A stretch of 64,000 nt of DNA from Halichondria panicea. Its lineage: Eukaryota > Porifera > Demospongiae > Suberitida > Halichondriidae. Position 1 is the stretch's first letter; the number at the start of each line of letters is the position of its first letter. The notes under the pieces are model-generated. The model did no database searches. It was not told the DNA's origin and saw nothing but the letters and a program-made list of their open reading frames with translations. Where the stretch lies: positions 12,510,632-12,574,631 of the forward strand of contig NC_087377.1 in the NCBI RefSeq assembly GCF_963675165.1, read 5' to 3'. Of the stretch, positions 415-45,322 are shown in pieces. The translations under genes and the position numbers were made by a program.

Positions 415-2049
415 ATGGCTGTTAAGATATGGCATTCTTTTGTCTTCAAAATATTGGTGTATGCTGGTAAGCTAATCTAGTCTCTCTAGACAGTGAATTA
501 ATAAGTATTCCACTCTCACAGTTATAATACAATGGTTGGTTGCAGGTATACGCTTGGTGCTTGGTGGTCTGACTCGTGACTACACTGAAACCCCCTGTGC
601 TGGTGATATGATCTCCCTCACTTGTACAGTGCCTGGGGCTTTACTGGAATGGGACGTGCCTGAACCAACGAGGGACATACAACTTGATGCTGGATCTGTA
701 GTCCCATTCCAACGAAATCAGTACACAATTAACACAGCTGTGTTGACGTTGAATTCCACCAGTTCAATGTTCTCCTCCAGTTTGAGTTTCCCTGCAACGG
801 ACGGGATCACTATTGGTTGTTTTCCTCTAACAGAGCCAATGATGAGGAACGAACTCACCATACTGACAGCAAGTAAGGTTCTGGGTTCTGTAGAGACATT
901 ATGACAGGACTATGAACCTTTTCTCTACAGCTGCTCCTTTACAACCGAATGGATTCAGTAACTCAATTTTGAGTACTTTAGCAAACAAAGTTAATGTTTC
1001 TGTTCGTTGGGATCCTCCTAATGGCAGAAATGATATCACCTACACAGTGACTATCTCACCTCCGGCCCAGCTCTCTGCAACTGTCACCTCTGTCACTGTG
1101 ACTGCTCAGTATAATGTGGACTACACTGTCAGTGTTGTGGCTACCAATTGTGCTGGGAACAGTACGGCAGCTGAGTACAACTTTAGGATTGGTGAGTTTT
1201 ATTTTTGACACACAGTGTCAACTCCTCCTCAGGCAATTACTGTCCTGTGTTGACCAACCCCATGAATGGAGTGTTTGGACCAACCACCAACAGTTTGCCA
1301 GGATCCACGATAACCATCCAGTGTGATGCTGGGTATGTGTCTACTGTTACAATGGTGACATGTGAGGGTACACTCATGTGGAGTCCAGACCCTGAGGCTA
1401 TTGAGTGTACATCACTAACCACACATACTCCCACAACTCGTGAGTTAAGCTTGTGGCTGTGTATGGATATATTAATTTTATTTTGTGTTAATTTTTCACA
1501 CAGTCCCCCCTCAAATGAATTGCACAGCTTCACTACCCCCACCACGAAATGGCACCATCAGTGGTCATTCAGTACCAGCTATTCCTGGTACACGAGTGGC
1601 CTTTCAGTGTGACGATGGACTGTTCCCTGAGGGAATAATGACTGTCACCTGTCTAGCTACAGGAGAGTGGGACAGGAACACGGGGGAAATTGTCTGCAGA
1701 GGCAAGCGTATTTATTACTTGCATACACTTGTAATCATAATTATTCTCTCCTGAACCAACTACAGCTGCTCTTTGTAATTGCGCCAGCCTATCTGATAGG
1801 AGTCAATTTGATGCAGCTGTCTCCATCAGTGTGGTTGTCACGGCAGCTCTATTCACAGTCATTGGATTGTTGATGGGACTCTTGATAATGTATTTGCTCA
1901 TGCGTAAGAAGGCAGCGTACTCCCCGTCAGCTGAAGGTCAAGCTAATGTAGGACACACTGTACCAGCTGGTCCTGTTTATGAGGAGGTGTCACCCAAAGA
2001 GGAGATTGAACTGAACACTAACCAGGCGTATGGACCATTAGGACAGTGA
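415..2049 (+). CDS. Receptor 1 (type A): Ig-FN3-CCP-CCP-TM-tyrosine tail
   Basis: Six exons rebuilt from splice signals: 415-466, 546-872, 931-1191, 1233-1439, 1504-1701 and 1766-2049, giving 442 residues with frame closed at every phase-1 junction. Exon 1 is a short signal peptide starting MAVKIWHS. Exon 2 is an Ig-like domain (cysteine pair around SLTC and IGC). Exon 3 is FN3, and exons 4 and 5 are sushi/CCP domains with four cysteines each. Exon 6 holds a transmembrane helix (about AAVSISVV to LLIMYLL), a basic stop-transfer stretch MRKK, and a cytoplasmic tail with VYEEV and NQAYGP. Exon 5 ends in a GC donor (AG|GCAAGC at 1702). It is probably a single-pass plasma-membrane receptor. Ligand and function are unknown. 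The domain calls are firm; the signalling role of the tail tyrosines is inferred from their conservation in the paralogues. Confidence 0.86.
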
Positions 2050-2255
2050 AACTTCTGTTAATGTGCATGCATGCTCATGCACAATTTTGACCACTTAAGA
2101 ACAAATGTATACAGCAAAATTTGTTCATTAAAAGCCACTATATCTTTTATACTACTAAAAACGAAGCTATATTAAACGAGTGGTGCAAGCTGCGCTGTGC
2201 TAATGCCTCTCGCCATGTTTTGCTCCGCTTAAAGTGTTATATGTCACATTCAAAT

Positions 2256-2306
2256 ACTAATACCTCTTCTATAATTATATAATATGATTATAGAAGAGGT
2301 ATTAGT
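2256..2306. repeat. Short perfect hairpin
   Basis: Two arms of about 20 bases (ACTAATACCTCTTCTATAAT and its reverse complement) flank a short AT loop just downstream of receptor gene 1. It could be a tiny inverted-repeat element or a cruciform; nothing shows a role in termination. Confidence 0.7.
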
Positions 2307-2334
2307 TTTCTTTGTATACTGTTAAGTTATTATT

Positions 2335-2374
2335 ATGCTTTGGTGCGTATGCGCAAGCGAGGTATATATACGGT

Positions 2375-2418
<44 letters not shown>

Positions 2419-2700
2419 TAGACTGCTACAGCTGCTCAAGGATGAATCAAGTGCAAGTAAGAGTTTCTATAGGCTTCTAGCAACGTTTTCTTGGATTCTG
2501 ATTCGTGGATTTGCAAAATAATGCTTCATTCTCGAGTTATACCTAGTTTTGCTTACTTGGAAGGCCATTGAGAAGAGTGCGTAGCAAAAGAGTGTTACTA
2601 CTCTACTTAGTAGTTAGCGCTGCACTAAAATGCTAGCTATTGGTAGCTGTAACAGTGATAAGAGAGCTGCAAGGCTATTAATTTTAGACTTTGTATTTTT
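2335..2700 (+). mobile_element. Dispersed GCCTCGGTG-type repeat, copy 1
   Basis: This is a member of a dispersed non-coding family. It opens with a GC-rich GTGCG.ATGCGCAAGCGAGGTATA block, followed by a GT microsatellite (2384-2414), an AGCTGCTCAAGGAT block and an AGTAAGAGTTTCTATAGGCTTCTAG block. The same succession recurs at 7213-7600 on this strand and, inverted, at 27990-28380; a partial inverted copy lies near 49150-49320. No protein is encoded. A non-autonomous DNA transposon is likely, but exact ends and target duplications are not resolved. Confidence 0.65.
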
Positions 2701-2972
2701 GGCACCATCCTCAATCATGATCGATCATTTCCCACTCCCTGAGCTTCCCTGTGTAGCAGCCATATGTAAAAATGTTCATCATGGTAATCATATCTGTGTA
2801 TCATAGGGTCACCACCAGAGGACGTTTGACATACATGCATGAATAATTACAAGTGCTAGTGTATATTTGGCATGGACGTTATCAAGCAAGGACATCAATG
2901 CACTGAACTTATATAGTGATTCGTGCACACATGTCGATTACATAATGAGTATCCATTTATCAGCCATCTCAC

Positions 2973-3134
2973 CAGTTTGAGCAGTGTCTCCAGGAGGTTG
3001 ATGTGTTGAGGGTAGTGTCTGTGTTGTAGTGTCTCAGCACAGAGGGGGAGGAGGGAGAACACTCTGTCACCACACCCACTCACACTGCTTAGCTCTCCAA
3101 GCAGGAGATTGAAACTGGAGGGGGTGTACAAGAC
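2973..3134 (-). pseudogene. Stray exon A of a HEAT-like gene
   Basis: Read on the minus strand, this stretch encodes a leucine-rich alpha-helical segment containing LLGELSSVSGCGD and ETLLKLV, ending at a plausible GTGAGA donor. A second copy lies at 56289-56452 with nearly the same residues. No complete gene surrounds either copy. It seems to be an exon of a gene with helical repeats that was carried along during duplication of the receptor cluster. The family assignment is weak; the repeated presence is directly visible. Confidence 0.45.
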
Positions 3135-3381
3135 TAGAAAACTGCTATTACGTATAACTCTACAATTAGTGCCTCTATTTACATAACACAACACATAAGC
3201 TCATTTGAGGGATCTCTTGTGTACACTGGCTCACCCTTATCACAAACACCTTGTACATAAGCTAGCATACCTTTATCCCATACCCCATAAAGCTATAAAG
3301 CTCCATACATCGTCACGGAAACACTACAACAGTATGCTCACCAATCGTCCCACATATGGTTTCAGACAATCCTTGTTCACC

Positions 3382-3393
3382 TGTGTGTGTGTG

Positions 3394-3425
<32 letters not shown>

Positions 3426-3436
3426 TGTGTGTGTGC
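3382..3436. repeat. GT/GC-GT microsatellite
   Basis: An alternating GT run with interspersed GCGT units. It sits beside a short conserved block reading VNKDCL on the minus strand (about 3350-3395), which recurs near 27270 and 50770. Confidence 0.9.
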
Positions 3437-4060
3437 TTCTACGATTGCAATTAGGCCTCTATACGACTTTCAGGCAAACGTAGGGGGTGGGCGGTTATTT
3501 GATATGGGAAGTTCGACAGTTAACTACGGTACTAGAATTGTTCCATTTAAAAACTATGAAAATTGAAAATTATGAGCTAACCTACTACTAATTAAATGAT
3601 TGTACTTTCAAGAATCGATCCTAAAATACAACATTTGACCCGCCTAAGAGTTGAGAGCTATTTGACAAAACTGTGGAACTAGGTAAGTTTCCCTCAACAT
3701 GCTGAACAATGCTGCACAATGTAATTGCACAGCTATTGTATAATAATTATTGTACCAGGTGTCATACAGTACACAGGGGAGCATCTGTACAATGTAATTG
3801 CACATTAACTAAACACACCGTCCATGGAAACACTCTACCGTATAGCCGGTAATTTACGGGGTTCAAAACATTCGTAGCTGAGCAATATTAACAATTCGTG
3901 GGATGCATTTTTGTGGCTCTGGGATATGTAAGTCTACCTGCACAGACTCATCAATATCATGCACAACAAGATACCTTAATTCAGTTATTATAGAGCTAAT
4001 TTAATAAATTTTTGCTGCAGAAATACATCGTCCACATTTGTGTTCTAATCAACCACTCAC

Positions 4061-4163
4061 CACTTTATCGATGTGCTGCTCTATCAGCTGCACTCCCCTG
4101 GTCTGTGTGACCACCCTCCAGGTCTCCTGAGAGTAGAGCCTCACACCCACAGCCACATAGTAC
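4061..4163 (-). pseudogene. Stray exon C of a HEAT-like gene
   Basis: A 103-base minus-strand exon bounded by a CAG acceptor and a GTGAGT donor. It encodes YYVAVGVRLYSQETWRVV and then a segment ending EQHIDKVV. An equal-length copy lies at 30028-30130 with HIHKVV in place of HIDKVV. Open frame and intact splice sites suggest recent function or recent copying, but no flanking exons make a complete gene. I cannot name the family with certainty. Confidence 0.5.
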
Positions 4164-4539
4164 CTGAGGGGATCGAGAGATAGTGAAATACAGTGGAATA
4201 ATGAACAAAGACCTTCAGAGAAAAGTAACAATGTAACAGTGCGAATTTCCTACACAAAGTATAATTCTGAGCGAAGCAAGGCTCTAATCAGAGAATTGGC
4301 GGTGGTGGTCGAAGATGACAGCGCGGACACATTCATTAGAACTATGGCTTAGTTTTAGTTGCTGTAAACTGTAACAGTTAATTGACTTCAAAGTTGGAGG
4401 AGGTGCTAGTGATTGTACTTTGTACTAAAGACATCAGCTCAATCAATTCTACAGCTCAGCTGGAGCTACAAAATGGATCTTAAATTGACGATTCAGGACA
4501 TTTACAACACACAACCTTCTGACGCACATCAACATTAGT

Positions 4540-4860
4540 GTATGTGATGAATACAGGTAGTGAGGTAGCACTACAGTGTATCCCTATAGATACAATCTGC
4601 AGGATAATCTCCACGTATCAAGTGGTGAACAACCTACTGTACACAGGTAAGACCAAGAGGAAGAGTATGCAACACCAATAGTCTGTACACAGGAGGCAAA
4701 CTCACTATTGCATGTAACCACAGTCACTTGAGATACAACAATAACAATAACAATGCTGATAAGGAAGAGCAATGAATAAAATTAGTGGTAATCATCACTA
4801 ACGTTTATTCATCTATTCATGCAAATTAATTTTAAGATTTTACAGTTTATACAACAGCAT
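4540..4860. repeat. Segment paralogous to 16.2-16.65 kb
   Basis: The sequence around CCACAGTCACTTGAGATACAA through TTTACAGTTTATACAACAGC is repeated near 16240-16330 and 16590-16630. The second copy is interrupted by a 260-base inverted-repeat element. This copy therefore represents the empty site. Confidence 0.75.
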
Positions 4861-5424
4861 GTGGTTGTGACGTAGGTTAGACAGAATGCTTACTACGGTT
4901 AGTGAAGTTGCGTACTCTTCCTAATGAACTTTTAGTAAGACATTATAGTCGTTTTTACGCACAATTAAGTTTGCGAGACTATGATAATGCAAATGAGTTC
5001 TTGTTGTGCTATTATAGAGCAGCATCAATATTCGGGCCAATCAATTATCTCGTACAGAGAGCAGATTGAGAAGTTGTCTTCCACTGACAATACTCGTTGT
5101 AAGGGCTAAACAACAAATATAATCCACTACAAGCCTTCCCTTAATTGTCAGAAAAGAGCTGCATATAAAGCTTAATCCGAAACGATATAAAAGTTTAATT
5201 AAACTGCGTTGTCCTATAAATTATTATATCAATAGAACTGTTAGCTTAAGAGGAACAGCTACAGCTGCAAGGCCGGGCAGACAATGTGCCACCAGGTGGC
5301 AGTATAGATTTGCATTAATTAGGAGGGTGTGTGGCAATCAAAAATCGTTTTGCGCACAAGGAAATTTGGGATTTCCGTAGCAGCAATTTTTATCAATTAT
5401 GAACTTACAAAGTGGTAAATATAA
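4861..5424. other. Non-coding, nothing recognised
   Basis: AT-rich DNA without supported exons, inverted repeats or tandem repeats that I could confirm. Confidence 0.4.
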
Positions 5425-5878
5425 AGTCCCCGTTCCGTTTACGTAGTACGTGCATAATACACTGATACAGCGCAAATTAAACGCTAAAAAGGACGCTCAA
5501 GATAAGAGCTTTTTTCTGTTGTTAAAATTACTTTGGTCACCCATGCAGCTATAGTTATCATGCAATTTTGCAGCTTGCTAGCTTTGTATTATAGCTACAT
5601 GTAAGATAGCTATAGCAATTATGCTAAGATTAAAATATTGCAGTGAATGGTGCGTTATATTTCTTTGTTAGATCTATGTAGAACTATAGGCTTATAGCTA
5701 AGCAAAATTTAGTTGGATATTATGTTACTAGAGGATTGTCGCTTTGTATTTAAAAACACAGCACACCGCATTTGTAAAGTACAATGGTATATAGCAACGA
5801 TACAGTAAAATCCGCTTTTAATACAGTACTTATCAAAATGGAAACACTTTAAACGTACTACGCAAACGGAATGGGATA
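5425..5878. mobile_element. Inverted-repeat element with CGTTTACGTAGTACG termini
   Basis: A left end reading GTTCCGTTTACGTAGTACG (5431-5449) matches, in reverse complement and with a few mismatches, the right end at 5854-5877. A further fragment of the same end lies at about 6474-6513. No coding capacity is seen. It is consistent with a MITE-like non-autonomous DNA element; target duplications were not identified. Confidence 0.5.
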
Positions 5879-7200
5879 TTGACCGATGTATACGTATATA
5901 GACAGATAACTAAGTCAGATAAGTATGGTATACTATTGCAATTGTTTTTTTGGGCGAAGCCACTATACCTAAAACATTGTGGCAATACAGCAGCATAATA
6001 ATACATGCCTCCAATTGTGTCAATACTTTACAGTGGTCTGGTCATACAAGGGTGTCCAGTATAATGCTCTCTCCAACACGTGTCACTTTCAACATCATCC
6101 TGCAATACGGTTTTTCACATAAATTCTTACAACAATAATTAATTATATAGTACCTTCAAAAAAGTACGACCACCATTTTGAAAGAACTTTAGACGTGAGA
6201 GGGAATCAGGCGTATTTTTTGCGAATGGCGTGCTTTCCCTCTAGGCAGTTGGCGTCTCACAACTATAATGTATATACATGTGAAAAGCAGTAGATCTAGT
6301 ATGTACAATAATTATAAATCAACATAGCATCAAGTATGTACAGCATATAGCTAAGTAACTAGTCTAGCTACGATACTCGAGGTGACTAGGATTGTCTCTT
6401 TGTTTGTTTTTTTGCAAAATGTATACTTGCAACGTGCAACGGTAAATTGCAACGCTTTTAATACAGTGTAAACGTACTGGCGTACTACATAAACGGAACT
6501 TATATTGACCGCTTACAATAATAGTGCAACATACGCTATGATAAGTACAGTCGAAACGGCAGTGGTTCTTAGTCAGACATGCATGCAATGAAACTAAGTT
6601 TTATGTGTTAACGAATAGCTATAGCGCTCCGGACATTCACCGGGACCAGAGTAGTCTCACAGTAAAGAAGCCAGAACTCAAGTGTGGCTGTATAGTGCGC
6701 ATTTGATGTATCAAGCTTTAAAATGAAACTGTATTTAGCTAGCTTCAATGCATGTGTACAAGGTTTAATTTATACTTTTTAGCTTTTACCCAACTAAGCT
6801 TTTTACCATTTGAAAATCTGTCAAAACAAATCACTTTTTTTGCTGAGGCTATCTATCCTAGCTAGCTGTTAACGCAGTGCCATGGCATCTAAGTGAAAAT
6901 ACACACACAAACAAACACACTTACTATACCGTCTTTCTTCTAATTACAGCGCTGCTGAAGATTTTCAGTGGCGCACAAATAGAACAAGAAAACCATAATT
7001 CCAGTTTGGCACTTATAATATTATTTAGAGTGGTGCTTAGCAACGTAGAGTACTATAGTATAGCTGTTTCCACGAAGCTATCAGATCAGTTGTACATGTA
7101 GCCTCGAATTAAGGATGCGTTATTTCTAATTATGTAAGCGCTAGCAACTTGGCGCTTAATTGGATAATTTATTTTGTGAATTTGGCCCTTTAATTAGAGT
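5879..7200. other. Non-coding, repeat fragments only
   Basis: I find no exon here that can be supported by homology to other parts of the window. A solitary end of the 5.4 kb inverted-repeat element is present near 6474-6513. The remainder is AT-rich unique-looking DNA. Confidence 0.4.
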
Positions 7201-9059: not shown

Positions 9060-9190
9060 ACAGGAGTTTCTTTGCTAGTTGCTCCTTTCCAATCTTACTG
9101 AGATGGTCCTCCAGCTCTCTCCATATATATCGGTCGTAGAACAACTCTTCATTCACTCACTTCTTCAATTTTGTCAACAGTTGAGATAAA
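9060..9190 (-). pseudogene. Decayed second-half death-domain exon
   Basis: On the minus strand this encodes a stretch starting WRELEDHLSKIGKEQLAKK and ending at a GTGAGT donor, clearly related to the intact death-domain exon at 17483-17645. Upstream of the WREL block the frame is closed by stops, and a TGA lies just before the donor. It is an isolated exon relic without the first-half exon nearby. Confidence 0.6.
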
Positions 9191-14640: not shown

Positions 14641-17600
14641 CTAGTGCTTGGCGTATTGCTTCATGGGGTGTGGAAGTGCCGGGGGTTCGTTGTTAGGGGC
14701 TGGTTTAGGGGGGCGGGGTGGAACCATCTCACCAGTTCTGCATGGGGAAGAGAGAAATAATGTATAGCACGAAGTTAAGAGTAGATAAGAGTGATTAGTA
14801 GTTATAGTAGTGTAGTATACAGAAGAACCTCGATTATTCGGACACCTTGGTTCCAAAGGAAGACCAGATAACTGAAAATGCCGGATAATCGAATTGATAA
14901 ACCCACTTAATTGATAAAAATTGATAGTGCATGTGGGCGTCTGCGCATGCGCAGAAGATAAACATGCCTGCCTGAGTCTATGGTAACAGCTGTTAATTGT
15001 GCATGTACAGTAAGGGACACGCACATTTTCCATTGCCATGCAATCGAGGTTCTGGATAATCAGTTGAGATTCTATACTCTAATATTTGAACATTGTGTCA
15101 TCACTGATAGTAATTTGTTATTGCAGACATGCTGATTGCGTAGTTTCACACACAGGTCACTGAGGTCAGTGCTATAGGTCAACAACTCTAATAAACTCAT
15201 AGAATAATGACGTAGACGTAGAGTTCGGCAAATTCATAGAGCAGTGTATAGTCCAGTTGCTCATTACCCCAACCTAGAGATACCACCACCTTTTAATTCG
15301 TTGGCTTATTAATTTTACTTATGACAACTTTAGTTGTGTGCTAAGGAATAAACTAGCTTTCCATACAATTGTAGTGGTAAACATTAAATACAGTTATTAC
15401 GAATTCGAATTAAGAATTACGAGTCTGTGCCAGTAACTTGCACGAGTGCTGCCTGCAGAATCATTCAACTTACGATTTAGGAGGGCGTGAGGGTGTGAGT
15501 GTATTTAGTAGTCCCGGACTGTCATCTGTCACTGTGGGGGATTTAGAGGGGAGGAGTGGGGTTTTGTCGTACTTATACGAAGTATTTGGTGTTGCCAAGC
15601 AAGAGTTCAACTCCACAGGGAGACAACCTGTGTGTATGTGTGGAGCAAAGAATGTGTCATTGGAATGATTCTCGCCATTTTAGTAGCGTAAAAACACAAC
15701 TATGTAGTGCATGTACAGGCACTTAAGCTCTCTAAAATTCAGCAGAATACAACTACTTCTTGTACAATAATATAAAAATAGTGGGTTTGGCCATTTGGCA
15801 AATCAAGGCGGGGTCACCAAAATTAAAAATCACCAGTTTTACTTTCGTACTCAGCCCCAGTACATTGCACAAGATCAGCATGATAATTATGATTGTCAAA
15901 TCAAATAGTTCAATAGCCTCATTGAAGTACATTGTGCTGATGATAGTCCCTACATTGTTCAGCATGTGAACTATAATTATTGTCTACAAATACTATAAGT
16001 GAGGTAACATACGTACTACACAGAAAGCTTGTGTGTCAGCAAATTATGAATTACATAGTGGACACTGTCAGGTAGGTGTACACTATTATAGCATGGCATG
16101 GTTTCCTTAAGGAATACAATAAGGAAGCATAGTACATGAACATGCATGTACATGTACGTTACAACACATACATACCCAATTAGAGTTCATTAGGTGTCTG
16201 ATCTAGGCACAAATACTCAGCATAATTATAACTGCAACCACTTGAGATACAAGACTCTAACAATAACAGCAACTGATAATACGAGGAAAGGCCATGAATA
16301 ACATCAGTGATAATCATCTAATATTTATTCATTGCAAAGTTCCTAAGGTCTGTGTTAGTTGTAAACATGTTTTTGGTCAGAAACTTAGCAAAATAGCATG
16401 AGAGGGAGGTTCTCATTTCCATGATTCAATTATTGATGATGTCATAAAATACAAATTTCCTGTTTGACGTCATTAAATAATGGCTGACACCAGCAATATA
16501 ATGGTAATTTTAAGCTGGCACTAAATGAGTATGCGGGAGGCTCACCAGAAACACGTTTGTAACTAACACAGACCTTAGGAACTTTGCAATAAACAAAATT
16601 TAAGATTTAACAGTTTATACAACAGCATGTATTGTGGTTGTGACCTATGCTGGACAGACCACCTACTACGTTTTAAGTGGAGTTGCGTTCCTAATGAACT
16701 CTTGATATATACGTAGAGCACAAGGGGCTTAATTTTCGCTGTATAGTGAATCAGAATGTGTAATGTGGTGGCTTAGAAGACAATACAATACCGTATAGCG
16801 GGTATATTTCGAGGGTATAACATTTTCGCGGTGTTCGCGGATTGAGCATGTACCGCGAAAATTTATATTGAATAGTAGGCGTGTTTAGTATTATTGACCA
16901 CACCTATTGACAATGAAAAAGGAATCAAGAGACAAGGACGCCGGTATAGCCAGCTAGCTTACTCTACGTCTACTGTATCCCCTGACTATGGCCTGCACAG
17001 CAAACGTTCTGCTAGAGGTGGAGGACATACATTGACTTGTAGTGCCTCACCGATTCTATTATTTTATACAGGCTAGGCCTGGATTCGAGGCTAACGGTGT
17101 GAGGTACAGCTGCATGTTGATGTGCGCATGTGCCAAAAGGCTGGAATTCAGACCACGAAAATAAAATCCGTGAAATCCTTCCATCCGCGATAATTTATAC
17201 CCCTCGAAATATACTCGCTATACGGTATATACATATCACCTATATACACACAGCAACTTGTGATAAGTGGGAAAAATGTACGAGTGCAACACTGATCGAC
17301 GTTTTGTAAAAACATTGTACATGAGGTTTAAGTGAAATAAAAAGGCAAGTTAAGGATGCATCTTAGGCTGTTATAAAACAAAACTACGTATGTGACAATA
17401 TCAATCTTGCTTAAGATAGCATTGGAGTCTCAAATATTAAATTCAAGAAAAAGCAGGCAGTGTATGCACCGACTGTACTCACTAGTCCCGTGAATAGTCA
17501 TGAGATCCTTTGACAGTTGCTCTTCTCCGATCTTACTGAGATGATCAGCCAGCTCCCTCCAGGTTATTGGTTGTTCAGAGCAACTCCATTGGTTAATCAC

Positions 17601-20600
17601 CTCCGTTAAACAGCCAGCACTGTCATTGCAACATGACTCCTCAATCTAAGTTGAGATTAAGGAAACAAGTTACTTCCATTTTGCCAGTAGAAAACAATGG
17701 TAAATCAGGAAATTTACTTTACACTGAAAGAACATGTAGCTCATACCATCAACCTATTAACAAGAGTACATAAGGAGAGAAGAGTGTGTCGAACTACCGA
17801 TACTTCTACACAAAAATTGTGCACAAAGTAACATGACTTCGCACGTGATGAAGTATTGTAAACTTACTAGTAATCTCTTCTTAGTAGATGTTAACCGTGA
17901 CGTTTTAGGGGTGTGGTAAATTAAAAAATTATATGTTAGCTAGCTAGTCGTTCGCGTTTAGCAATCAGAGCTACTCACTGCACACCGATAAAATCATCTA
18001 AATAGAGACAATTTAATCCTCTTCACTTGCACTCTTCACTCACTATTAACAAATTCTGTGCGTTGCGTAATTATGTGCAAACGTCATCAATTGCGAGTTG
18101 CTCACGTGCAATTGACCGGATGTCACGTTACTTTGTGGACAGTTTTTGTGTAGAGGTATTGGTAGTTCAACACTCTCCTCCTTATGTACTCTTGCTATAT
18201 ATCCATCTGTATACTCCTGCTCACACTTGCAATTGATAAGTAACATACCTCTTGATGGAATTATGTACCTGTTCAATCATTGTCTCCGGCAGCCTCACAC
18301 TCTCAGCAAGCTCCCTCCACTTGTGCTTCATTGACCGGATCTGCACCAAGGCCTGGTCAATGTCCAGGAGCTTGTCCACATCTGCCGGGGCTGAGGATGT
18401 TTGTTGGTGAGAGTGCACTGTATATATAGTGGGTAACGAATTATTTATCCCAAGGAAATTACCCGCTATACAGTATATACAAACACCGTAAAGTTGTTTC
18501 CAAGACTGGACAACCAAACAAGCTAATGCATGCATGCATTGCATGCTTATATATAAACCACTAAAGTCTCCCCACTGTCCTATTGAAGTTATAATTACCG
18601 TATAAATTATAGCAGGTTATTTTTATATGGTGAAAATGTTTGTATATTTCGTATTGTAAAGAGCATCATACAAAAATTAAAACTCCGAAATTATTCTACT
18701 GCAAATAGATTCAATGTCACTATCCTGAGCTGTACGAAAATTGAAGTCGTTTGTATGAAAATTTGCAACGAAAATTACCCGCTATACAGTATGTTCTAAT
18801 CAGGTGATGAACTGACAAATATAGAGTCAAATTACCATAACTCAAAACAACCAGGAACAGATAATTCTACATATATACAAAACACTTCTTGTTAATCACA
18901 ATAATGGGAAAATATAAGCCTATACTGAAAGGAGAAGACTATCTTGTATACAACTATCAATACCATTGACAATGATTATTCAAAGCAATGACTAATCCAC
19001 ACAAACAGGCTCACCTGTTGGGCTGGCTGGGAGGGTGGCTGCCTTGGCTGATTGTTTCTTAGTGGCATCAATATCCACAGTGGCGTAGGTCACCTGATGT
19101 TGGTTTGCTGTGGTAGTACTAGTTGTGTTGTTTTTCTGGCTGGAGCTAAGGACAGCATAGACGACTGGCTCCAATGTGGCCTGTGGTGTCAAGAAACAAA
19201 CAGAGTAAAGAATTACATTTCACACTATGGTGCGGTTATATAACCAAAGCAAACACCCTATAAAGTCACAATAATCTCACTATAATGACTGCACACGTAC
19301 ACTCACCACAATACCGAGCTGTCCATAGGAAGGTAGTCTCTGAGCGCTCTGCAGAAAATGGAGTATATTTATACTCCATTTATACTCCATACTTATAGGT
19401 TACTATCTATACCTTTTCACTGTTGACGGTAACCTCATCGTAGGTTAATGAAGCAGGGTTCTATGATAAAAGTACAGACTAAACTCACAATGTGTCAATA
19501 CACCGAATTATGAGTGATTATGTTGTAATCTTCTTCGTCTGCTGCTGGAGGCTGGTACTACATTAAATATTTTGTACAAGTACTTTCTTAGGCATGCATT
19601 GTGTTAATATTATAATTATAGTAAAAACAATGGATCATAATACAATACACCAGACAACTAAAACCTACATTAATTATATCATCCATTTCCGTACTATTAT
19701 TTGATTTGAGTGTACTTTCTGTGAAAAAAGCGGTATTATAATTATAATAAATTATTTTTTTGTGGATTATTTCAACTCACCTTTTCCCATTCTTCTGAAA
19801 ACCACTAACAAAACTATTGCCCCTAAAATGATGAGTAACATGACTACTATACCACCAACAACACCTCCAGCTATAGCAGCAACGTTCCCACGTGTTACTG
19901 CCACACCTATATAATTATAATAGGTCATTATAATTATATATGTGCATGTATATAGGTATGACATACAAAACTTATAGTATGCAAGCATGTAGTAGCTTAC
20001 TGCATGATTCATTTCTGCAGATAATCTCTCCTGTGTTCTTGTCCCGCTCTCCATCTATACCATACAAGTGGCAGTCATTATCCCCTCAGGGTTGAATGCT
20101 GTCAACTATATACCAATCTTAAAGTTGTAGTCAGCGGTTGTACTATTTCCAGCACAGTTGGTAGCCACAACACTGACAGTGTAGTCCACATTGTATTGAG
20201 CAGTCACAGTGACAGAGGTGGATGTGAGGACAGTAGCAGAGAGCGGGGCCGAAGGTAATATGGTCACTGTGTAGGTGAGGTTATCTCTACCAACAGTCTC
20301 AGTAGGAGCGTCCCAACCAATAGTCACACTGACTCCATTGGCTGAGCTGCTCGAAGTGAAGTGTCTTATGGTGGAAAGTGGCCCTGGTGGATCTATAATT
20401 ATATTATGTATATAAGTGTAACTGTTTACATATAGCTTATATAAATAGGACGAGACACTTACTAATCAATTGGATCATTGAAGATCCTATAGTGGTTAGA
20501 GTAGGCTGTGGGTCCACACAAGACACAGTGATCCCATTCTCTGCTGTTCTTGACAGAGTAGATGTTAATGTAGTATCATTGAATGCAATCAGTGTCACAG

Positions 20601-20905
20601 TGTAACCAGAATGCATTAGCAGCATACTGATATTGGAGGTGGAGCGAACAGTGATGCGAGAAACATCTGATGGCTCCCATCTCAAAGAATTTCCAGGAGC
20701 AGTGCAGGTGAAAGTGACTAATTCTGTTGGACATGGTCTCTCATCACTCACTGAATATTGTGCTGTAAAGAAAATAGGCAAGATTTACCTGCATAATCAT
20801 CACAATTCCGAAAAGTAAATATAGTTTGATACCATGTCCAGTGACAGCACTCTTAGAAGCAAAATATAATATGACCACAAGGTCGCAGTATGGCCAATGT
20901 ATCAT
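14641..20905 (-). CDS. Receptor 2 (type B): Ig-FN3-TM-ITIM-death domain-proline-rich tail
   Basis: Thirteen minus-strand exons: 20833-20905, 20463-20762, 20114-20392, 19781-19906, 19669-19718, 19504-19557, 19413-19460, 19307-19348, 19015-19180, 18269-18390, 17483-17645, 15474-15627, 14641-14737. Phases match at every junction and the total is 557 codons plus stop. Order: signal peptide (1-24), Ig-like (to about 124), FN3 (to 217), glycine-rich transmembrane helix (AGGVVGGIVVMLLI), and five tyrosines at Y287 (DYNII), Y301 (LTYDEV), Y318 (SYGQL), Y332 (VVYAVL) and Y356 (VTYATV). Then come a death domain (about 380-472, KWRELAE, CLTEVINQW, TWRELADHL) and a proline-rich end with PPRPPKP. Three tyrosine sites fit the ITIM pattern [ILVS]xYxx[ILV]. 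Inference: a plasma-membrane receptor that could recruit SH2 phosphatases or kinases and death-fold adaptors. No transcript confirms the model. Confidence 0.82.
14819..15060. mobile_element. pogo/Tigger-like terminal repeat element, inside receptor 2 last intron
   Basis: The left end reads GAACCTCGATTATTCGG and the right end contains ATCGAGGTTCTGGATAATC, an imperfect inverted pair. Ends with CTCGATTATCCGGA-like sequence are typical of pogo/Tigger-type elements. There is no coding capacity. It sits in the intron between the last two exons of receptor 2. Confidence 0.5.
16331..16590. mobile_element. 260 bp TIR element with empty-site paralogue
   Basis: The left end ATTGCAAAGTTCCTAAGGTC continues to about 40 bases and is mirrored by the right end GACCTTAGGAACTTTGCAAT. 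The flanks line up with the duplicated segment at about 4800-4835, which lacks the element, so insertion postdates that duplication. It is located in the receptor 2 intron between the death-domain and proline-rich exons. Confidence 0.8.
16789..17227. mobile_element. 439 bp TIR element, TACCGTATAGCGGGTATA ends
   Basis: The left end TACCGTATAGCGGGTATATT and right end ATACTCGCTATACGGTA are inverted and continue inward (TTTCGAGGGTATAA against TTATACCCCTCGAAA) for about 45 bases. TA borders both ends. Shorter pieces (CCGCTATACAGTA) occur near 13730, 18465, 18780 and 37530, so this is a common non-autonomous family here. Confidence 0.8.
20001..20093 (-). pseudogene. Relic CCP exon in a receptor 2 intron
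   Basis: On the minus strand, between the FN3 and transmembrane exons, lie blocks matching the second half of the type A CCP2 exon: CTGAGGGGATAATGACTGCC, then GGGACAAGAACACAGGAGAG and a TCTGCAGAAATGA end before GTAAGC. The first cysteines and the exon's opening are gone. Skipping it preserves the phase-1 junction from FN3 to TM. Receptor 2 thus descends from, or recombined with, a CCP-bearing gene. Confidence 0.7.
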
Positions 20906-21413
20906 TTCAGTTAGCTATTATAGGACAATGCATGAGCTAGCTGCTATACAAGGTGTTGAGTCTACAGAACACACATCGCATGTTTATATACTGCGTCCTT
21001 GAGTGCATGCATGGGGATTATTTATGCTTGCATGAGATGATGTAATGTTTCTATAGTATAAATTAGCCACTGAAAGTAAGATATCAATAGACTAAGTATA
21101 GCTATAGGGAGGCTTGTTAATACTATAATTATATATCTGCATGACTTAAGAGTGTATTTGCTTGTTTATAAACCAATAGATGGATAGATCTAATTTTGAG
21201 CAAGCTAGATTTATGTGATTCTAGTTACATGCATGCTATATCTATATATATCTATTCACAAAAAAAATTTGAAAGCCTTTTATAGGGCCGGCTATATAGG
21301 CATAGATACTATATACTTGAAGTTGAAAGATCGGATCAAGCATGACGCCAATGTCAATGGTAAAAAATACTCATTAAGATCAAGACATGTTGTAACTTTC
21401 TGTGTTCAGGCAG

Positions 21414-22524
21414 TATCGGTGCTCTTAGAAGTATGCCTGATTATAAATGTGTCTGGTCTGAGGATGACCTTTACGTCATCTCTGCAATCAACAAACAGAA
21501 CCTACTCTTGTCCTGAGGAGATTGTTACCTATGTCTGCAGTGGAAATGGAAGTGAAATGGATCTATATGCCCCACCACACGTTTCTTCGACCTTTCCTTT
21601 GACGTATGACATTAACGACACTCCAGGGTTAAAACTTGGTGGCTCAGGCCCTATTGTAACGAGTCTTACTTCGACTAATCCTCTCGAAGCAAACTTGTTG
21701 GTGCAAAATTCTTCATTGCCAGAGTTTTCTGTTCATTGTATTGTTCGTGCACATTCATCTTCAAAAAAAGATGAAATCCGGTACATGCCTTCAGGTATAT
21801 ACTGATGGAATCAGCACTTTAATTAATAAAGACTCGCAATCCACTTTATTGCCCGAGAGGGAGTGTAGTGGGAACATGCATTGATTTGTACTATCAGGCA
21901 ACGGTCATTATAATAATCTCTTACTGCAGGTTTTCCTTTAGATGTGATTTCTCCGGTGATATTTTACGAATTTAACACTGCTGGTGTGAGAGTTACTTGG
22001 ATGAATAATGATGGACTCTATGATCCTAGTCACTACACAGTCCAGTTAATTGCAAATAATAATCTAACTGAATCCACCGTTATTTTTGCAGAAAGCAATA
22101 GATTAGTAGCAGTATTTGCTGCGTCTTTCAGTGCCACTGTGAATGTCTATGCAAGGATAACCGTGACGTCCAAGTGTAACCAGACATCTGATGGAGTTTT
22201 CACTGACACCATTCCAATATCTAGTGCCACTGATACCTTTCCGACAACTAGTGCCACTGACATCATTATGATAACTAGTGCAAGTTAGTTGCTAAAACTA
22301 CAATAATTTATGGGTAACTGATTTTTCTGTCATACGTTTTGTTACATTTTTCAAAGCTGCAGGCATATTAACTCCTAAAGTAGCTGTTTAGTCATAATTA
22401 TAGTGACCACTGTTAGTATACTACTTCATTTATTCATGCAGGTATAACAACAGAGTACGTGTTCTGGTTACTTCTTTCAACTGCAACATTCGTCCTATAT
22501 AGCAATATAGTATATATAGTGTAG
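21414..22524 (+). CDS. Receptor 3: Ig-FN3 with tail-less hydrophobic C-terminus (5' end uncertain)
   Basis: Exons about 21414-21794, 21930-22283 and 22442-22524 join in phase 1. The first holds an Ig-like domain (TYSCPEEIVTYVC to FSVHCIV) preceded by a hydrophobic stretch, SVLLEVCLIINVSG, that may be the signal peptide. The second is FN3-like (RVTWMNNDGLYDPSHYTV) followed by a Ser/Thr-rich stalk. The last encodes SITTEYVFWLLLSTATFVLY and a few more residues before TAG. No cytoplasmic tail follows, so the product is either GPI-anchored or a tail-less membrane protein. The open frame continues upstream to 21233 (first in-frame ATG), but a phase-1 acceptor (GGCAG|TA) at 21413 suggests a separate first exon, which I could not locate. 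It lies head-to-head with receptor 2. Confidence 0.62.
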
Positions 22525-23441
22525 GTGTATGTCTCCGCTTCAAAAACTACAGCCTTATATATGTATGCTTTTATTTTCATGCAGCTATATTTTTCATAGA
22601 TCTAATGTATAGCTATAAACATTACGACCCTTATTTTGTGGTACATATAATCCTGCATTCTGTGTCTGTTAGTGAGTGTGGAGAAATAGTTTCCAACTGC
22701 ATCACTGCTGAAGATTCCTTGTGAGGGAGCCTGCTGCTATCAATTTGATATTGAATTCTGTGGTAGATTGAAAGATTGTCATGAGGGGTCAGTACCACGT
22801 ACCTCCAGCTCTTTTTATTTAATACACATCAATTGAAGATTTCTATACATACAAACAATATTGTTCTACATATACAGTGCATGTTGTAGGAAGGGGGGGG
22901 GCTTTAGGGGCTGGAGCCCCCCCATCTTTCTAGGCTATTATAAACAGTTATGACTTATCAAGCTGCACTATAATATTATGTCTAGATAGCCGTACTTTTT
23001 CCCATAAAAAAACAACTAAGAGCCCCCCCATTGAGGAATTGGTTTCTATGCCACTGATATACATCTATATAGGTGACCGTGGGCAGTCCAATATCCTTGT
23101 GTGTGTGTGTGTGTGTGCACAACCATTGACCCACGCCCATCTTCTAAGCCAAGTGTTCATTGGGGGTCGGCGATCAAATCAAGCTAAGTTGGTGGGTTGG
23201 GCCATAGGTTGGGCCAGCTGACCCCAAATTCAAACTAAAGTGATGACCCTTTTCCCCACGGTTGCGAACGACCTGTAAAGGGTTATAGGTACAAACCTAA
23301 TACTACACCATTAGGCAGAGCTTTATATCACACTTATAAGTCACCACCCATGTATATCTTCCTTGTATATAGGTGTGGTATCCTATACATAACATATCTG
23401 GACCTACAACTGCCAACCCAACACATCATTAGATAGCCATA
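22525..23441. other. Non-coding interval
   Basis: No supported exon. It contains a G-run with a short inverted pair around 22890-23035 and a GT microsatellite near 23098-23118. Confidence 0.4.
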
Positions 23442-23631
23442 ACATATATACCTGGGAACTATACATGCATAATTATATAACATATATACCTGGGAACTAT
23501 ACATGCATAATTATATAACATATATACCTGGGAACTATACATGCATAATTATATAACATATATACCTGGGAACTATACATGCATAATTATATAACATATA
23601 TACCTGGGAACTATACATGCATAATTATATA
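23442..23631. repeat. 38 bp tandem repeat, five copies
   Basis: Five exact head-to-tail units contain ACATATATACCTGGGAACTA followed by TACATGCATAATTATATA. The units are identical and contiguous with no spacers. This is a young minisatellite. Confidence 0.95.
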
Positions 23632-29224: not shown

Positions 29225-29400
29225 TCACGTCCGAGTTCCTTTGACAGCTGCTCTTCTACGATCTTACTAAGATAATCGGCCTGTTTCCTCCAGATTGGTC
29301 ATCCAGAGAAACTCTTCATCCCATTAGTCCAATCACTTCTGTCAAGCACCTAGCACTGAATGTCCATTGCAATATGAATCCTCTAGAACAAGATATTTGA
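29225..29400 (-). pseudogene. Decayed second-half death-domain exon
   Basis: The minus strand shows GCTTGACAGAAGTGATTGG (CLTEVI) and TGGAGGAAACAGGCC followed by YLSKIVEEQLSKEL. These are alignable to the intact exon at 17483-17645, but with a frameshift and a stop between the two halves. It is a relic. Confidence 0.65.
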
Positions 29401-31091: not shown

Positions 31092-31255
31092 CAGCCTCAC
31101 AGATAGTTAGGAGTTCCTTTGCCAGTTGCTCTTCTGAGATCTCACTGTGATAGTCTCCCAGCTCCCTCCACAGGTTGGTCGTCCAGAGCAACTCTTCATC
31201 ATCCCACTGGCACTATACTTGTACTACTCTGCACTTCAGTCAAGCAGCTGAGAAA
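31092..31255 (-). pseudogene. Decayed second-half death-domain exon
   Basis: The minus strand has a CTCAG acceptor, CTTGACTGAAGTG, then an inserted stretch with in-frame stops. It then reads LWRELGDYHSEISEEQLAKE. The order and spacing match the intact exon at 17483-17645. The frame break makes it non-functional. Confidence 0.65.
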
Positions 31256-33535: not shown

Positions 33536-33669
33536 CTGTTCAATCAATGTCTCTGACAGCCTCACAGTCTCAGCCAGCTCCCTCCACTTGTGCTTCATTG
33601 ACCTGATCTGCACCAAGGCCTGGTCAATGTCCAGGAGCTTGTCCACATCAGGCGGGGCTGGGGCTGAGG

Positions 33670-38395: not shown

Positions 38396-38444
38396 ATACG
38401 AACAGTGATACAAACTCATTCTCAGACTCCAGCCTTTCACTGCA

Positions 38445-41381
38445 ATGGCTGACTTACCAACCCTTCGACGAAGAAGAGGAGTAACAAAATCGTCCATAAC
38501 TAAGCTTGGAAACAAGACCAATGATTTGGAGGCAGCAGAACACGATCATATTGTTGTGAGCCATGCTGCACAACTTTTGAAAAGGCTAGAGACCTACGAT
38601 GCTGACTACAGAAGTCATCACATGGCCATTATCGATGCCTTGGAAAGTGACGAAGCTACAGTACCTGAACAAGAAGAACTGGACCGTCACAATGAAGATG
38701 TAACTGACTTGACTATTAGGCTACAAGTGCTGTCAGCGGCACCAATCTCGACTGTCACTGATGGACGTACTTTCGCTCTACGCCAGTTGGCACAACTGCA
38801 GGCAAAACTCACTGCCATAGGAGACCATATCTCTACACTCGCTGCCGACCCAAATGACGTACCGTTGGTGCACCTCTACCAAGAACAACTCATGGAATTC
38901 AAGCGAGAACTATTTGACATTCGCAACAACGTGATATCGATCACCGTGGACGACTCTGACCCCCTAAATGATACTATCAAGAGGCAGGAGAAATTGATAT
39001 TCGACATGTCTGTCACCGTGAAGAGGCTTCTCTACAGCCCTAGTACAGAAGCTCTCGTCCCTACCACACCAGAAACTCCGACTCGTGGAGTCAATCTTCC
39101 CAAAATTGAAATAGCTACATTCAATGGTGACCTGCTCAGTTGGCAAACATTCTGGGAACAGTTTGATGTGTCCATACACAGCCGCAGGGACGTTAGCAAT
39201 GCTGAGAAACTGGCCTATCTTTGCCATTCCCTGAAGGATGGATCTGCAAAAGCAGTCATAGAAGGATTGTCGCAATCGGATGATCAGTACTTGGAAGCAA
39301 TTGCATTGCTCAAGGCGAGATACGACCGACCAAGGCTAATTCATCAAACCCACGTCCAGAAGATATGTGAAGCCCCAAGTCTTAAAGATGGTTCTGGCAA
39401 AGAATTGAGACGTCTTCACGATACCGTTCAACAACACCTGCGTGCCCTCAAGGCGATGGACCAAGATCCCTCTGGAGCCTTCATCACATCCATGATGGAA
39501 CTAAAGCTCGATCAAACTACCATGTTTGAATGGCAAAAGACTAGCCAAGCCACAAAAAGCGTACCTCATTACCAGGCTATATTGGAATTTCTCAACCTCC
39601 GTGCCCAAGCTGCAGAGACCTGCTCTACCCAAGAAAGAAAACATGTTCGAAATGACTCAAGAAAACCACCCAGATTGATTCCATCTCATATCGGACATGT
39701 GTCTGAGGTGAATGCTACTGTTTGCGTCGTGTGCAAGACTGAGAAACATCCTCTATACACTTGCCCCAAGTTCAAGAACCTACCCCATGACAAAATGCTG
39801 CTAACTATCCGTTCCAACAACTTATGCCTGAACTGCTTTAGAACAGGACACATGGCGAGAAACTGCACAAGTATTCATCGGTGTAAAAGGTGTCAAAAAA
39901 CTCATCATACTTTGTTGCACACTGATGCTAAACCTCCTGATGCTAAACCTCCTGACTCACAGTTAACCACCAAGGACCCTCCAACGATCGAGCAATCTCT
40001 CACAGCCAGCGTTGTATCTACTAATGTTGGACAGGTTGGATCGGGCTCACATACGCTTTTAATGACCTGCCAAGTGTTAATCCATGCTCCCAATGGTTCT
40101 CAGATCAGAGCACTTGGTCTACTGGACACTGGTTCGTCAACCTCGTTTGTGTCGCAACGATTGGTGCAATCTCTCAACTTACAAAGATCATCGAAGAATC
40201 TTGAGATCACTGGAATAGCGGGAATATCTCACAACTCCCCACTGCACTCAGTCTCCACTTTCTATATCTCACCGACCGATTCACCAAATGAAAAGATGCC
40301 AGTCACTGCGATAGTGGTCCCAAGGGTCACCTGTGACTTACCAGTGCAACCCACTCCATTTGATTCGAAATGGGAGCACCTATCCGATTTGAACCTCTCT
40401 GACCCAGACTTTGGCCAACCTGGAAGAATTGACATACTTCTTGGAGTTGATATTTACACTGAGGTGTTACTGCAGGGCCGGCGGAAGGGACCAACTGGAT
40501 CAATATCCCCTGTGGCATTTGAAACGGCATTCGGCTGGGTACTTGCTGGAAAGACAGGAAAACTCTCCACCACTCCTGACAAGATCACTAATTACCATGT
40601 ATCTGTTACCTCTGGCGATGACATCCTGAGAAAGTTCTGGGAAATAGAAGAAAGCACCAAAACTGGATCAAACTTCTCCCCACAAGAACGCACTGTTGTT
40701 CACCATTTTGAAAGAAACCACTCTCGTAGAGAAACTGGTCGATTTATTGTCCCACTTCCCAAGGATCCACATGCCAAATCGATTGGAGAATCCAGAGCAC
40801 AAGCCGTCCGCAGATTTCTATCCCTAGAAAGGACCTTACGCTCCAAGGAACAATTCTCACAATTTGCTGCTGTCATGGAAGAATATATGGACCTGAATCA
40901 TGCTGAAATTGTTCCAGTTGCTGATTTACAGAAACAAAATGAAGATGTGTTTTATTTGCCAATGCATGCTGTTCACAAGGAGCACAGTACGACTACGAAG
41001 ATCAGGGCTGTATTTGACGCGTCAGCCAAGTCTACCATCGGCGTCTCACTGAACGACACACTGTTGGTCGGACCCACCGTACACCCTCCACTGATAGATG
41101 TTCTATTACAATTTCGACTACACAAGATTGCGATCACAGCTGACGTGAGCAAGATGTACAGGGCTGTTGAACTGACTCAACCCGATCGGGATCTCCACAG
41201 ATTTGTGTGGTGCAGCAAGCCCGACAACACTCTAGTCGATTACAGAATGACTAGAATTACATTTGGTGTCTCTGCTTCTGCTTTTGCAGCAAACATGTCA
41301 GTCAAACAAAATGCTATTGATCATGCTACTGAGTTTCCACAAGCTGCAAACGTACTTCATTCTACGTCGATGACCGTCTAA
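38445..41381 (+). CDS. BEL/Pao gag-protease-RT, truncated by frameshift
   Basis: An open frame of 978 codons. Order: a Gag region with the conserved LPKIEIATFNGDLLSWQTFW block (DUF1759-like, about residues 222-300); three cysteine/histidine knuckles (CVVCKTEKH, CLNCFRTGHMARNC, CKRCQKTHH; about 425-492); an aspartic protease with LLDTGSSTSFVS (about 558-569); and a BEL/Pao reverse transcriptase (IRAVFDASAK, ADVSKMYRAVEL, FGVSASAFAA). The frame ends in TAA just after the place where the catalytic Y-x-D-D should be; that motif is present in another frame immediately there, so a one-base change disrupts the enzyme. Neighbours: LTR and leader upstream, broken pol downstream. Confidence 0.9.
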   Translation: MADLPTLRRRRGVTKSSITKLGNKTNDLEAAEHDHIVVSHAAQLLKRLETYDADYRSHHMAIIDALESDEATVPEQEELDRHNEDVTDLTIRLQVLSAAPISTVTDGRTFALRQLAQLQAKLTAIGDHISTLAADPNDVPLVHLYQEQLMEFKRELFDIRNNVISITVDDSDPLNDTIKRQEKLIFDMSVTVKRLLYSPSTEALVPTTPETPTRGVNLPKIEIATFNGDLLSWQTFWEQFDVSIHSRRDVSNAEKLAYLCHSLKDGSAKAVIEGLSQSDDQYLEAIALLKARYDRPRLIHQTHVQKICEAPSLKDGSGKELRRLHDTVQQHLRALKAMDQDPSGAFITSMMELKLDQTTMFEWQKTSQATKSVPHYQAILEFLNLRAQAAETCSTQERKHVRNDSRKPPRLIPSHIGHVSEVNATVCVVCKTEKHPLYTCPKFKNLPHDKMLLTIRSNNLCLNCFRTGHMARNCTSIHRCKRCQKTHHTLLHTDAKPPDAKPPDSQLTTKDPPTIEQSLTASVVSTNVGQVGSGSHTLLMTCQVLIHAPNGSQIRALGLLDTGSSTSFVSQRLVQSLNLQRSSKNLEITGIAGISHNSPLHSVSTFYISPTDSPNEKMPVTAIVVPRVTCDLPVQPTPFDSKWEHLSDLNLSDPDFGQPGRIDILLGVDIYTEVLLQGRRKGPTGSISPVAFETAFGWVLAGKTGKLSTTPDKITNYHVSVTSGDDILRKFWEIEESTKTGSNFSPQERTVVHHFERNHSRRETGRFIVPLPKDPHAKSIGESRAQAVRRFLSLERTLRSKEQFSQFAAVMEEYMDLNHAEIVPVADLQKQNEDVFYLPMHAVHKEHSTTTKIRAVFDASAKSTIGVSLNDTLLVGPTVHPPLIDVLLQFRLHKIAITADVSKMYRAVELTQPDRDLHRFVWCSKPDNTLVDYRMTRITFGVSASAFAANMSVKQNAIDHATEFPQAANVLHSTSMTV

Positions 41382-41384
41382 CAG

Positions 41385-44987: not shown

Positions 44988-45322
44988 GTATGGTGATGTC
45001 GGTGTGTACACTGTATGGTGATGTTGGTGTGTACACTGTATGGTGATGTCGGTGTGTACACTGTATGGTGATGTTGGTGTGTACACTGTATGGTGATGTT
45101 GATGGTGATGTTGGTGTGTGTGTGCACTGTATATGGTGGTGATGTTGGTGTGTGTATACTGTATGGTATGTATGGTATGTATACTGTATGGTGATGTTAG
45201 TGTGTACACTGTATGATGATGTTGGTGTGTACGTACTGTATGGTGGTGATGTTGGTGTGTGTACACTGTATGGTGATATTGGTGTGTGTACACTGTACAG
45301 TGATGTTGGTGTGTGTACACAA
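44988..45322. repeat. Minisatellite, TGGTGATGTTGGTGTGTACACTGTA units
   Basis: About a dozen imperfect units of 24-30 bases, for example GTGTACACTGTATGGTGATG. Related single units occur upstream of receptor 7 (53340-53380). It lies about 430 bases upstream of receptor 5. Confidence 0.92.

What the first reader, a model, noticed from the sequence alone, without database searches (positions are those of the whole stretch)
14641..20905. Ig-FN3 receptor carrying ITIM-like tyrosines and a death domain in one protein
Thirteen exons join with no phase conflict into a 557-residue receptor: Ig, FN3, TM, three [ILVS]xYxx[ILV] sites (LTYDEV, VVYAVL, VTYATV), a complete death domain split by a phase-0 intron, and a PPRPPKP proline-rich end. 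VTYATV resembles ITIMs of vertebrate leukocyte receptors such as the LILRB family. In vertebrates ITIM receptors and death-domain receptors are separate families; a single chain with both, in what is probably a sponge, would be an unusual signalling design. Exon phases and motifs are seen directly; function is inferred.
Basis: partly seen in the sequence, partly recalled or inferred. Interest (0 to 1): 0.93.

Follow-up and report, generated by a model that had tools for sequence, protein, structure and literature searches.

The report
Sponge immune-like receptor with death domain
A breadcrumb-sponge gene encodes a cell-surface receptor whose inner tail joins inhibitory-type tyrosine sites to a cell-death domain, and it lies in a very large cluster of related receptor genes that share outer parts but carry one of two different signalling tails.

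Summary
The minus-strand gene (14641-20905) splices exactly to a RefSeq protein of the sponge Halichondria panicea, LOC135348343 isoform X2 (548 aa, 12 coding exons). The death domain passes Pfam's cut-off; its family profile is nearest to FADD. Three ITIM-like sites exceed chance. The fusion recurs: 19 genomic copies of the ITIM exon were found, and all 15 open ones are followed on the same strand by both death-domain exons. They lie on contig C1 (about 11.2-14.9 Mb) among at least 150 exon copies of a short tyrosine tail on related ectodomains. Tail type and ectodomain phylogeny are uncoupled, and the death-domain part is 97% identical in DNA between two genes whose ectodomains differ. This resembles a paired-receptor or allorecognition complex with a death domain added. 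SHP-2 and FADD homologues are in the genome. Ten searches of an open-access library showed no description of the family. Untested: phosphorylation, SHP or FADD binding, ligand, polymorphism, transcripts. The Ig assignment is below Pfam significance. Vertebrate precedent exists: CD95 has an ITAM/ITIM-like tyrosine inside its death domain.

The parts
20833..20905 (-). coding exon 1, start codon and putative signal peptide
   Evidence: identical to P0001 when spliced; hydropathy modest, 1.09
20463..20762 (-). exon 2, Ig-like (V-type) domain
   Evidence: weak antibody V-domain profile hits; no Pfam Ig hit
20114..20392 (-). exon 3, FN3-like domain
   Evidence: Pfam fn3 20.8 bits, below cut-off 25
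20001..20054 (-). optional small exon, resembles the end of a sushi domain that paralogues have whole; skipped in P0001
   Evidence: reading it as a remnant is inference
19781..19906 (-). exon 4, transmembrane helix
   Evidence: hydropathy 3.35
19669..19718 (-). exon 5, juxtamembrane
19504..19557 (-). optional exon (YQPPAADEEDYNIITHNS), skipped in P0001; its counterpart is used in P0002, P0003 and P0006 (and, diverged, P0005)
19413..19460 (-). exon 6, LTYDEV site
19307..19348 (-). exon 7, PSYGQL tyrosine
19015..19180 (-). exon 8, VVYAVL and VTYATV sites
   Evidence: both tyrosines kept in the 12 loci whose DNA was at hand; 19 genomic copies
18269..18417 (-). exon 9, first part of the death domain (alternative acceptor gives 18269-18390)
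   Evidence: dN/dS 0.20 over 15 loci
17483..17645 (-). exon 10, second part of the death domain
   Evidence: dN/dS 0.20 over 15 loci
15474..15627 (-). exon 11, proline-rich (SRPPKS end)
14641..14737 (-). exon 12, PPRPPKP proline-rich end and stop codon
33536..33658 (-). isolated copy of the first death-domain exon; no ITIM exon beside it
   Evidence: 90% identical; the only ITIM-exon copy in the window is the one at 19015-19180
31102..31209 (-). remnant of the second death-domain exon
29233..29298 (-). remnant of the second death-domain exon
9061..9123 (-). remnant of the second death-domain exon

Best explanation
This is one member of a large H. panicea family of surface recognition receptors built like paired receptors. 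A diversified Ig-FN3(-sushi) ectodomain is attached either to a short tail with tyrosines (GPVYEEV...NQAYGPLGL) or, in a minority, to a long conserved tail with several tyrosine sites, a FADD-type death domain and SH3-type proline motifs. Most likely mechanism: a ligand (self, non-self or microbial) clusters the receptor; a Src-type kinase phosphorylates the tail tyrosines; SHP-2 (and in many paralogues PI3K at YxxM) docks there and sets the threshold, while clustered death domains recruit a FADD-like adaptor and drive a caspase or NF-kB output. One chain would thus carry both the output and its brake. Shown: gene structure, tail composition, conservation, clustering, tail exchange, presence of SHP-2 and FADD homologues. 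Inferred: phosphorylation, docking, ligand, direction of the signal, and the recognition role.
For: Exact match to a RefSeq protein. Pfam Death over cut-off; the ten best PDB matches of the family's death-domain profile are all FADD (E 6e-5 to 4e-4). ITIM exon: 19 genomic copies, 15 open, all 15 with both death-domain exons downstream on the same strand within 6.3 kb, and these death-domain exons are open in all 15. Both tyrosines of the ITIM exon kept in the 12 loci whose DNA was at hand; 11 of 14 motif columns invariant against 9 of 43 others, p 1.8e-4. dN/dS 0.33 for the ITIM exon, 0.20 for each death-domain exon. 150 FN3-exon rows and 150 short-tail-exon rows scored, 146 and 150 of them on C1 at 11.25-14.93 Mb. 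Death-domain-tail receptors do not form one ectodomain clade: AU p 0.0014, and 0.0036 without two long branches. DNA of the death-domain part with introns 97.4% identical over 2.5 kb to the 13.39-Mb copy, falling to 77% around the transmembrane exon. SHP-2 homologue (E 1e-82); FADD homologue (E 3e-17).
Against: No biochemical or transcript evidence. ITIM-type sites can recruit SHP-2 with activating effect (recalled). P0007, one of 12 death-domain proteins, is annotated without the second half of the domain. In one search the Pfam score is under the cut-off for 3 of 7 death-domain proteins (P0003, P0005, P0022). Ig not significant in Pfam, FN3 under cut-off. Ectodomain dN/dS is under 1 (Ig 0.57, FN3 0.30), so positive selection is not shown. 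No relative shown outside H. panicea, so conservation over deep time cannot be judged. Whether each of the 15 loci is a complete gene was not checked.
Confidence: 0.62

Rival explanations
1. Pure activating or inflammatory receptors: the tyrosines recruit SHP-2, PI3K or Grb2-type adaptors for survival or motility signals and the death domain is a scaffold (MyD88 or p75NTR style); nothing is inhibitory.
For: YxxM in 8 of 12 death-domain proteins (P0002, P0003, P0005, P0006, P0019, P0022, P0024, P0027), though not in this gene's P0001; SHP-2 ranks above SHP-1 in the PDB search; passages of PMC4572867 report CD95 signalling to PI3K.
Against: Two classical ITIM-type cores per tail, their tyrosines invariant in 12 of 12 loci, fit dual SH2 docking; this does not decide the sign.
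Confidence: 0.22
2. Microbial pattern-recognition receptors with no role in self/non-self recognition between sponges; the expansion reflects pathogen or symbiont pressure.
For: Genes with sushi, immunoglobulin or DEATH domains are among those regulated after LPS in H. panicea (passages of PMC8242945; not identified there as this family).
Against: None direct; the cluster layout is equally like allorecognition complexes.
Confidence: 0.4
3. Gene-model artefact: the death-domain exons belong to a separate cytosolic protein and are joined by the annotation pipeline.
For: An isolated death-domain exon copy exists in the window (33536-33658).
Against: 15 of 15 open ITIM exons are followed by both death-domain exons in order; phases and splice sites fit; RefSeq models of several loci agree.
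Confidence: 0.04

Closest known systems
Botryllus schlosseri fester co-receptors (FcoR) of the fuhc locus
   Same: Type I receptors with Ig and sushi domains, a long tail with ITIM or YxxI/L/V motifs, a large clustered multigene family (PMC12065747: passages and section 11)
   Different: 53 loci; 'death domain' does not occur in that paper's main text; C2 Ig domains, not FN3; fuhc linkage known there
Hydractinia Alr family (allorecognition complex)
   Same: Clustered IgSF receptors, 41 genes, ITIM/ITAM-type motifs (passages of PMC11999971 and PMC12065747)
   Different: No death domain mentioned in the passages seen; here FN3 and sushi domains and two tail types; allorecognition role known there, not here
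Vertebrate paired receptors (LILR, KIR, SIRP type)
   Same: Shared ectodomain pool with long ITIM tails or short tails; gene conversion in a cluster (recalled, not from a call)
   Different: No death domain (recalled); the short tail here carries its own tyrosines; pairing with a charged adaptor was not tested; no sequence kinship shown
CD95/Fas and other death receptors
   Same: Death domain in a membrane receptor; an ITAM/ITIM-like tyrosine motif, and SHP-1 binding by a cited title (PMC4572867)
   Different: TNFR cysteine-rich ectodomain (recalled); the tyrosine lies inside the death domain; here separate tyrosine exons precede it
UNC5 receptors
   Same: Ig-bearing surface receptors with a C-terminal death domain (recalled)
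   Different: UNC5 has TSP1, ZU5 and UPA domains (recalled); none is found here by Pfam
Sponge genes with Ig domains and a death-fold domain
   Same: A Dysidea avara gene with Ig domains and a CARD is listed among microbe-responsive genes (PMC6208332, passage)
   Different: CARD, not a death domain; tyrosine motifs not reported in the passage

Membership tests
Death domain superfamily (PF00531) | profile score over the curated cut-off | tested here: met
   23.7 against 22.6 bits; 4 of 7 death-domain proteins scanned pass, P0003, P0005 and P0022 do not; FADD best in PDB
Death domain superfamily (PF00531) | six-helix death fold | not testable with these tools
   structure prediction not available
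ITIM receptors | [SILV]xYxx[ILV] in the cytoplasmic tail of a transmembrane receptor | tested here: met
   three sites, p 0.0072; two conserved in 12 of 12 loci; TM helix
ITIM receptors | phosphorylation and SHP-1, SHP-2 or SHIP recruitment | not testable with these tools
   only a SHP-2 homologue in the genome was shown
Ig superfamily | significant Ig profile match | tested here: inconclusive
   no Pfam Ig hit; best PDB match E 0.004 to an antibody V domain; Cys-Trp-Cys pattern conserved in 9 of 9
TNF-receptor death receptors | TNFR cysteine-rich repeats | tested here: not met
   no TNFR family among Pfam matches
UNC5 | ZU5/UPA and TSP1 domains | tested here: not met
   absent from Pfam matches
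LILR/KIR family | sequence kinship of the ectodomain | not tested
   no direct comparison made; FN3-like and sushi domains argue against it
Invertebrate allorecognition complex (Alr, FcoR type) | clustered multigene IgSF-type receptors with tyrosine tails | tested here: met
   with the reservation that the Ig assignment itself is inconclusive
Invertebrate allorecognition complex (Alr, FcoR type) | high population polymorphism and linkage to graft or fusion outcome | not testable with these tools
   one assembly only

The most novel reading that the evidence does not exclude
The C1 cluster is a sponge self/non-self recognition complex, probably of well over 100 genes, whose ectodomains are shuffled between a short tyrosine tail and an 'ITIM plus death domain' tail, so that one molecule both triggers and restrains a FADD-type rejection or death response. 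It would add sponges to the animal recognition systems that use ITIM-type signalling (mammals, tunicates, cnidarians) and be the first known with a death domain in the same chain.
Probability: 0.3. Interest if true: 0.93.

Novelty: new variant of a known kind. Interest (0 to 1): 0.76.

Why it matters
The receptors by which sponges tell self from non-self are not settled; a 2025 review (PMC12065747, passages) notes that the candidate proteins of sponges, cnidarians and ascidians are not conserved and that cnidarian, tunicate and mammalian systems converge on ITAM/ITIM signalling. A sponge cluster with ITIM-type tails would extend that convergence to an early animal branch. The attached death domain gives a direct, testable route from recognition to rejection or cell death: genotype the cluster and score graft outcome.

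Tried and rejected
Rejected: my own first end of the gene, which lacked the exon at 15474-15627 and needed a weaker donor. Rejected: a single oddity. Not reached: a structure model of the death and Ig-like domains (tool off); relatives in other sponges (three protein searches). Positive selection in ectodomains was not seen (dN/dS under 1, few copies). A search with the transmembrane exon gave 31 mostly weak matches on several contigs and was not used. NCBIfam gave nothing useful. Papers seen: passages of PMC9798719 (it mentions unknown death-domain proteins and a partial FADD-like sequence in H. panicea), PMC6208332, PMC12909245, PMC11999971 and PMC4572867; passages plus section 13 of PMC8242945; passages plus section 11 of PMC12065747. 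None of the parts seen describes this family.
Full report
WHAT WAS CHECKED. Reading the strand and splicing by GT-AG sites gave a continuous receptor. A search of public proteins returned P0001, H. panicea LOC135348343 isoform X2, 548 aa, covering the whole query. The genome is therefore that of the breadcrumb sponge; the window is G000:C1:12510632-12574631, and C1 has the same length (18,138,809) as the contig listed for P0001.

DOMAINS. Death domain: Pfam E 5.4e-5, 23.7 bits over the cut-off of 22.6. A profile of nine family death domains finds FADD chains as its ten best PDB sequences (E 6e-5 to 4e-4). FN3: 20.8 bits, below cut-off, on my 525-aa model, and not listed at E 0.01 for P0001. 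Ig: not in Pfam; weak matches to antibody V domains. Sushi is over the cut-off in all 8 other proteins scanned (P0013 only just); this gene keeps only a small sushi-like exon, skipped in P0001. The transmembrane helix peaks at residues 236-254. The tail has three ITIM-consensus sites; by shuffling, three or more occur in 0.72% of tails. The end carries two PxRPPK motifs; that such motifs bind SH3 domains is recalled.

A FAMILY, NOT A SINGLE GENE. Of the 44 proteins returned have the death-domain start motif. Eleven of these also have VTYATVD; the twelfth, P0044, is a distant relative with two death domains and VSYAMV and VDYTTV sites. Twenty-four have the short tail, and none has both. In the genome the ITIM exon has 19 copies, 15 without a stop and 4 with one TAA. 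Against the death-domain rows used (19 first-part and 18 second-part rows of the 111 matches), all 15 open copies have both exons downstream on the same strand (416-5941 and 1065-6221 bases), and none of the 4 broken copies has them within 48 kb; shorter death-domain remnants left out of that count do lie nearer, for example at C1:12600598. The death-domain exons of the same 15 loci are open. FN3 exon: 150 rows scored out of 276 candidates, 146 on C1 at 11.25-14.93 Mb; 4 rows hold a stop, a few are halves of one exon, and the weaker ones belong to divergent relatives. Short tail: 150 rows scored out of 305 candidates, all on C1, 148 without a stop. These are exon counts, lower bounds for copies, not counts of intact genes. 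Seven short-tail exons are in this window, all on the plus strand.

CONSTRAINT AND EXCHANGE. dN/dS: ITIM exon 0.33 (the 12 of 15 loci with DNA at hand), death-domain exons 0.20 and 0.20 (15 loci each); FN3 exon 0.30 (8 copies), Ig exon 0.57 (6 copies), short tail 0.47 (10 copies). In the ITIM exon both tyrosines are kept in 12 of 12 loci, and 11 of 14 columns within three residues of them are invariant against 9 of 43 others (p 1.8e-4). Compared with the 13.39-Mb copy, DNA identity is 97.4% over 2.5 kb holding the death-domain exons and introns, 95% around the ITIM exon, 86-87% over the next small exons and 77% around the transmembrane exon. At protein level P0001 and P0002 share 97% of the tail and 77% of the ectodomain; P0003 and P0005 share 96% and 78%; P0001 and P0022 share 72% of the tail but 31% of the ectodomain. 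Not all pairs behave so: P0001 and P0003 differ about equally in both parts (ectodomain 73%, tail 70%). On an ectodomain tree of 32 of the 44 proteins (8 death-domain tail, 24 short tail; left out: five unspliced or partial ones, those with neither tail, and those covering under 130 residues) tail type changes six times, about as with shuffled labels (mean 7.3; 75 of 500 as low); one clade is rejected (AU p 0.0014; 0.0036 without P0019 and P0022). Many branches of that tree are weakly supported. Tails have therefore moved between ectodomains, or ectodomains between tails; duplication and gene conversion are the likely means (inference).

PATHWAY PARTS. Two SH2 matches and a phosphatase match lie in line on C3; the two-SH2 part matches SHP-2 at E 1e-82. 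A DED and a death-domain match lie in line on C7; the pieces match FADD at E 3e-17, and a partial FADD-like sequence of H. panicea is mentioned in PMC9798719 (passage). These show that partners exist, not that they bind.

MECHANISM. Most likely: ligand clustering leads to tyrosine phosphorylation and SHP-2 docking, which tunes a FADD-type death-domain output of the same chain. Structure, conservation and partners are shown; phosphorylation, docking and sign are inferred. A purely activating role is the main rival for the tail; microbe sensing is the main rival for the cluster's purpose.

KNOWN WORK. Vertebrate precedent for tyrosine motifs with a death domain exists in CD95, where an ITAM/ITIM-like motif surrounds Tyr291, with a cited report titled that death receptors bind SHP-1 (PMC4572867). 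Clustered Ig-type receptors with ITIM tails are tied to allorecognition in Hydractinia and Botryllus (PMC12065747, PMC11999971). Section 13 of the H. panicea immune-repertoire paper lists TIR, NLR, C-type lectin, SRCR and GPCR families and putative cytokine receptors with Ig and FN3 domains (PMC8242945), not this family by name. Ten searches of the open-access library listed no paper that describes it by title or abstract start; four of these lists were cut (20 of 26, 20 of 53, 12 of 14 and 12 of 35 shown), and subscription papers and most preprints are outside that library.

VERDICT. The architecture is a new variant of clustered IgSF-type recognition receptors, with a death domain in the ITIM tail. 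The recognition role is a well-founded hypothesis, not a result.

Noticed in passing
38409-43908 (+): Retroelement of the BEL/Pao kind (name recalled): DUF1759 and DUF5641 matches, broken into several frames.
   Followed up: partly
63077-63973 (+): Reverse transcriptase fragment (RVT_1) near the window end.
   Followed up: partly
21338-22288 (+): Plus-strand open frames begin about 430 bases from the receptor's start codon, head to head; no Pfam match. Whether they are a gene, and whether a promoter is shared, was not tested.
   Followed up: partly
1831, 36244, 48294, 52508, 55312, 58189, 60337 (+): Seven short-tail receptor exons, all on the plus strand, while 11 of the 15 open ITIM exons in the genome are on the minus strand.
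   Followed up: partly
L014, L015 (C1:14.43 and 14.51 Mb): Distant relatives with two death domains in tandem; P0044, of this type, has VSYAMV and VDYTTV sites.
   Followed up: partly
G000:C4, about 0.04-2.6 Mb: Long run of tyrosine-phosphatase domain matches, tandem-like.
   Followed up: no
G000:C12, about 1.04-2.08 Mb: Many similar death-domain matches, an expansion of another family.
   Followed up: no
44988-45314; 23439-23631: Minisatellites: 25-base unit about 13 copies; 38-base unit 5 perfect copies.
   Followed up: no
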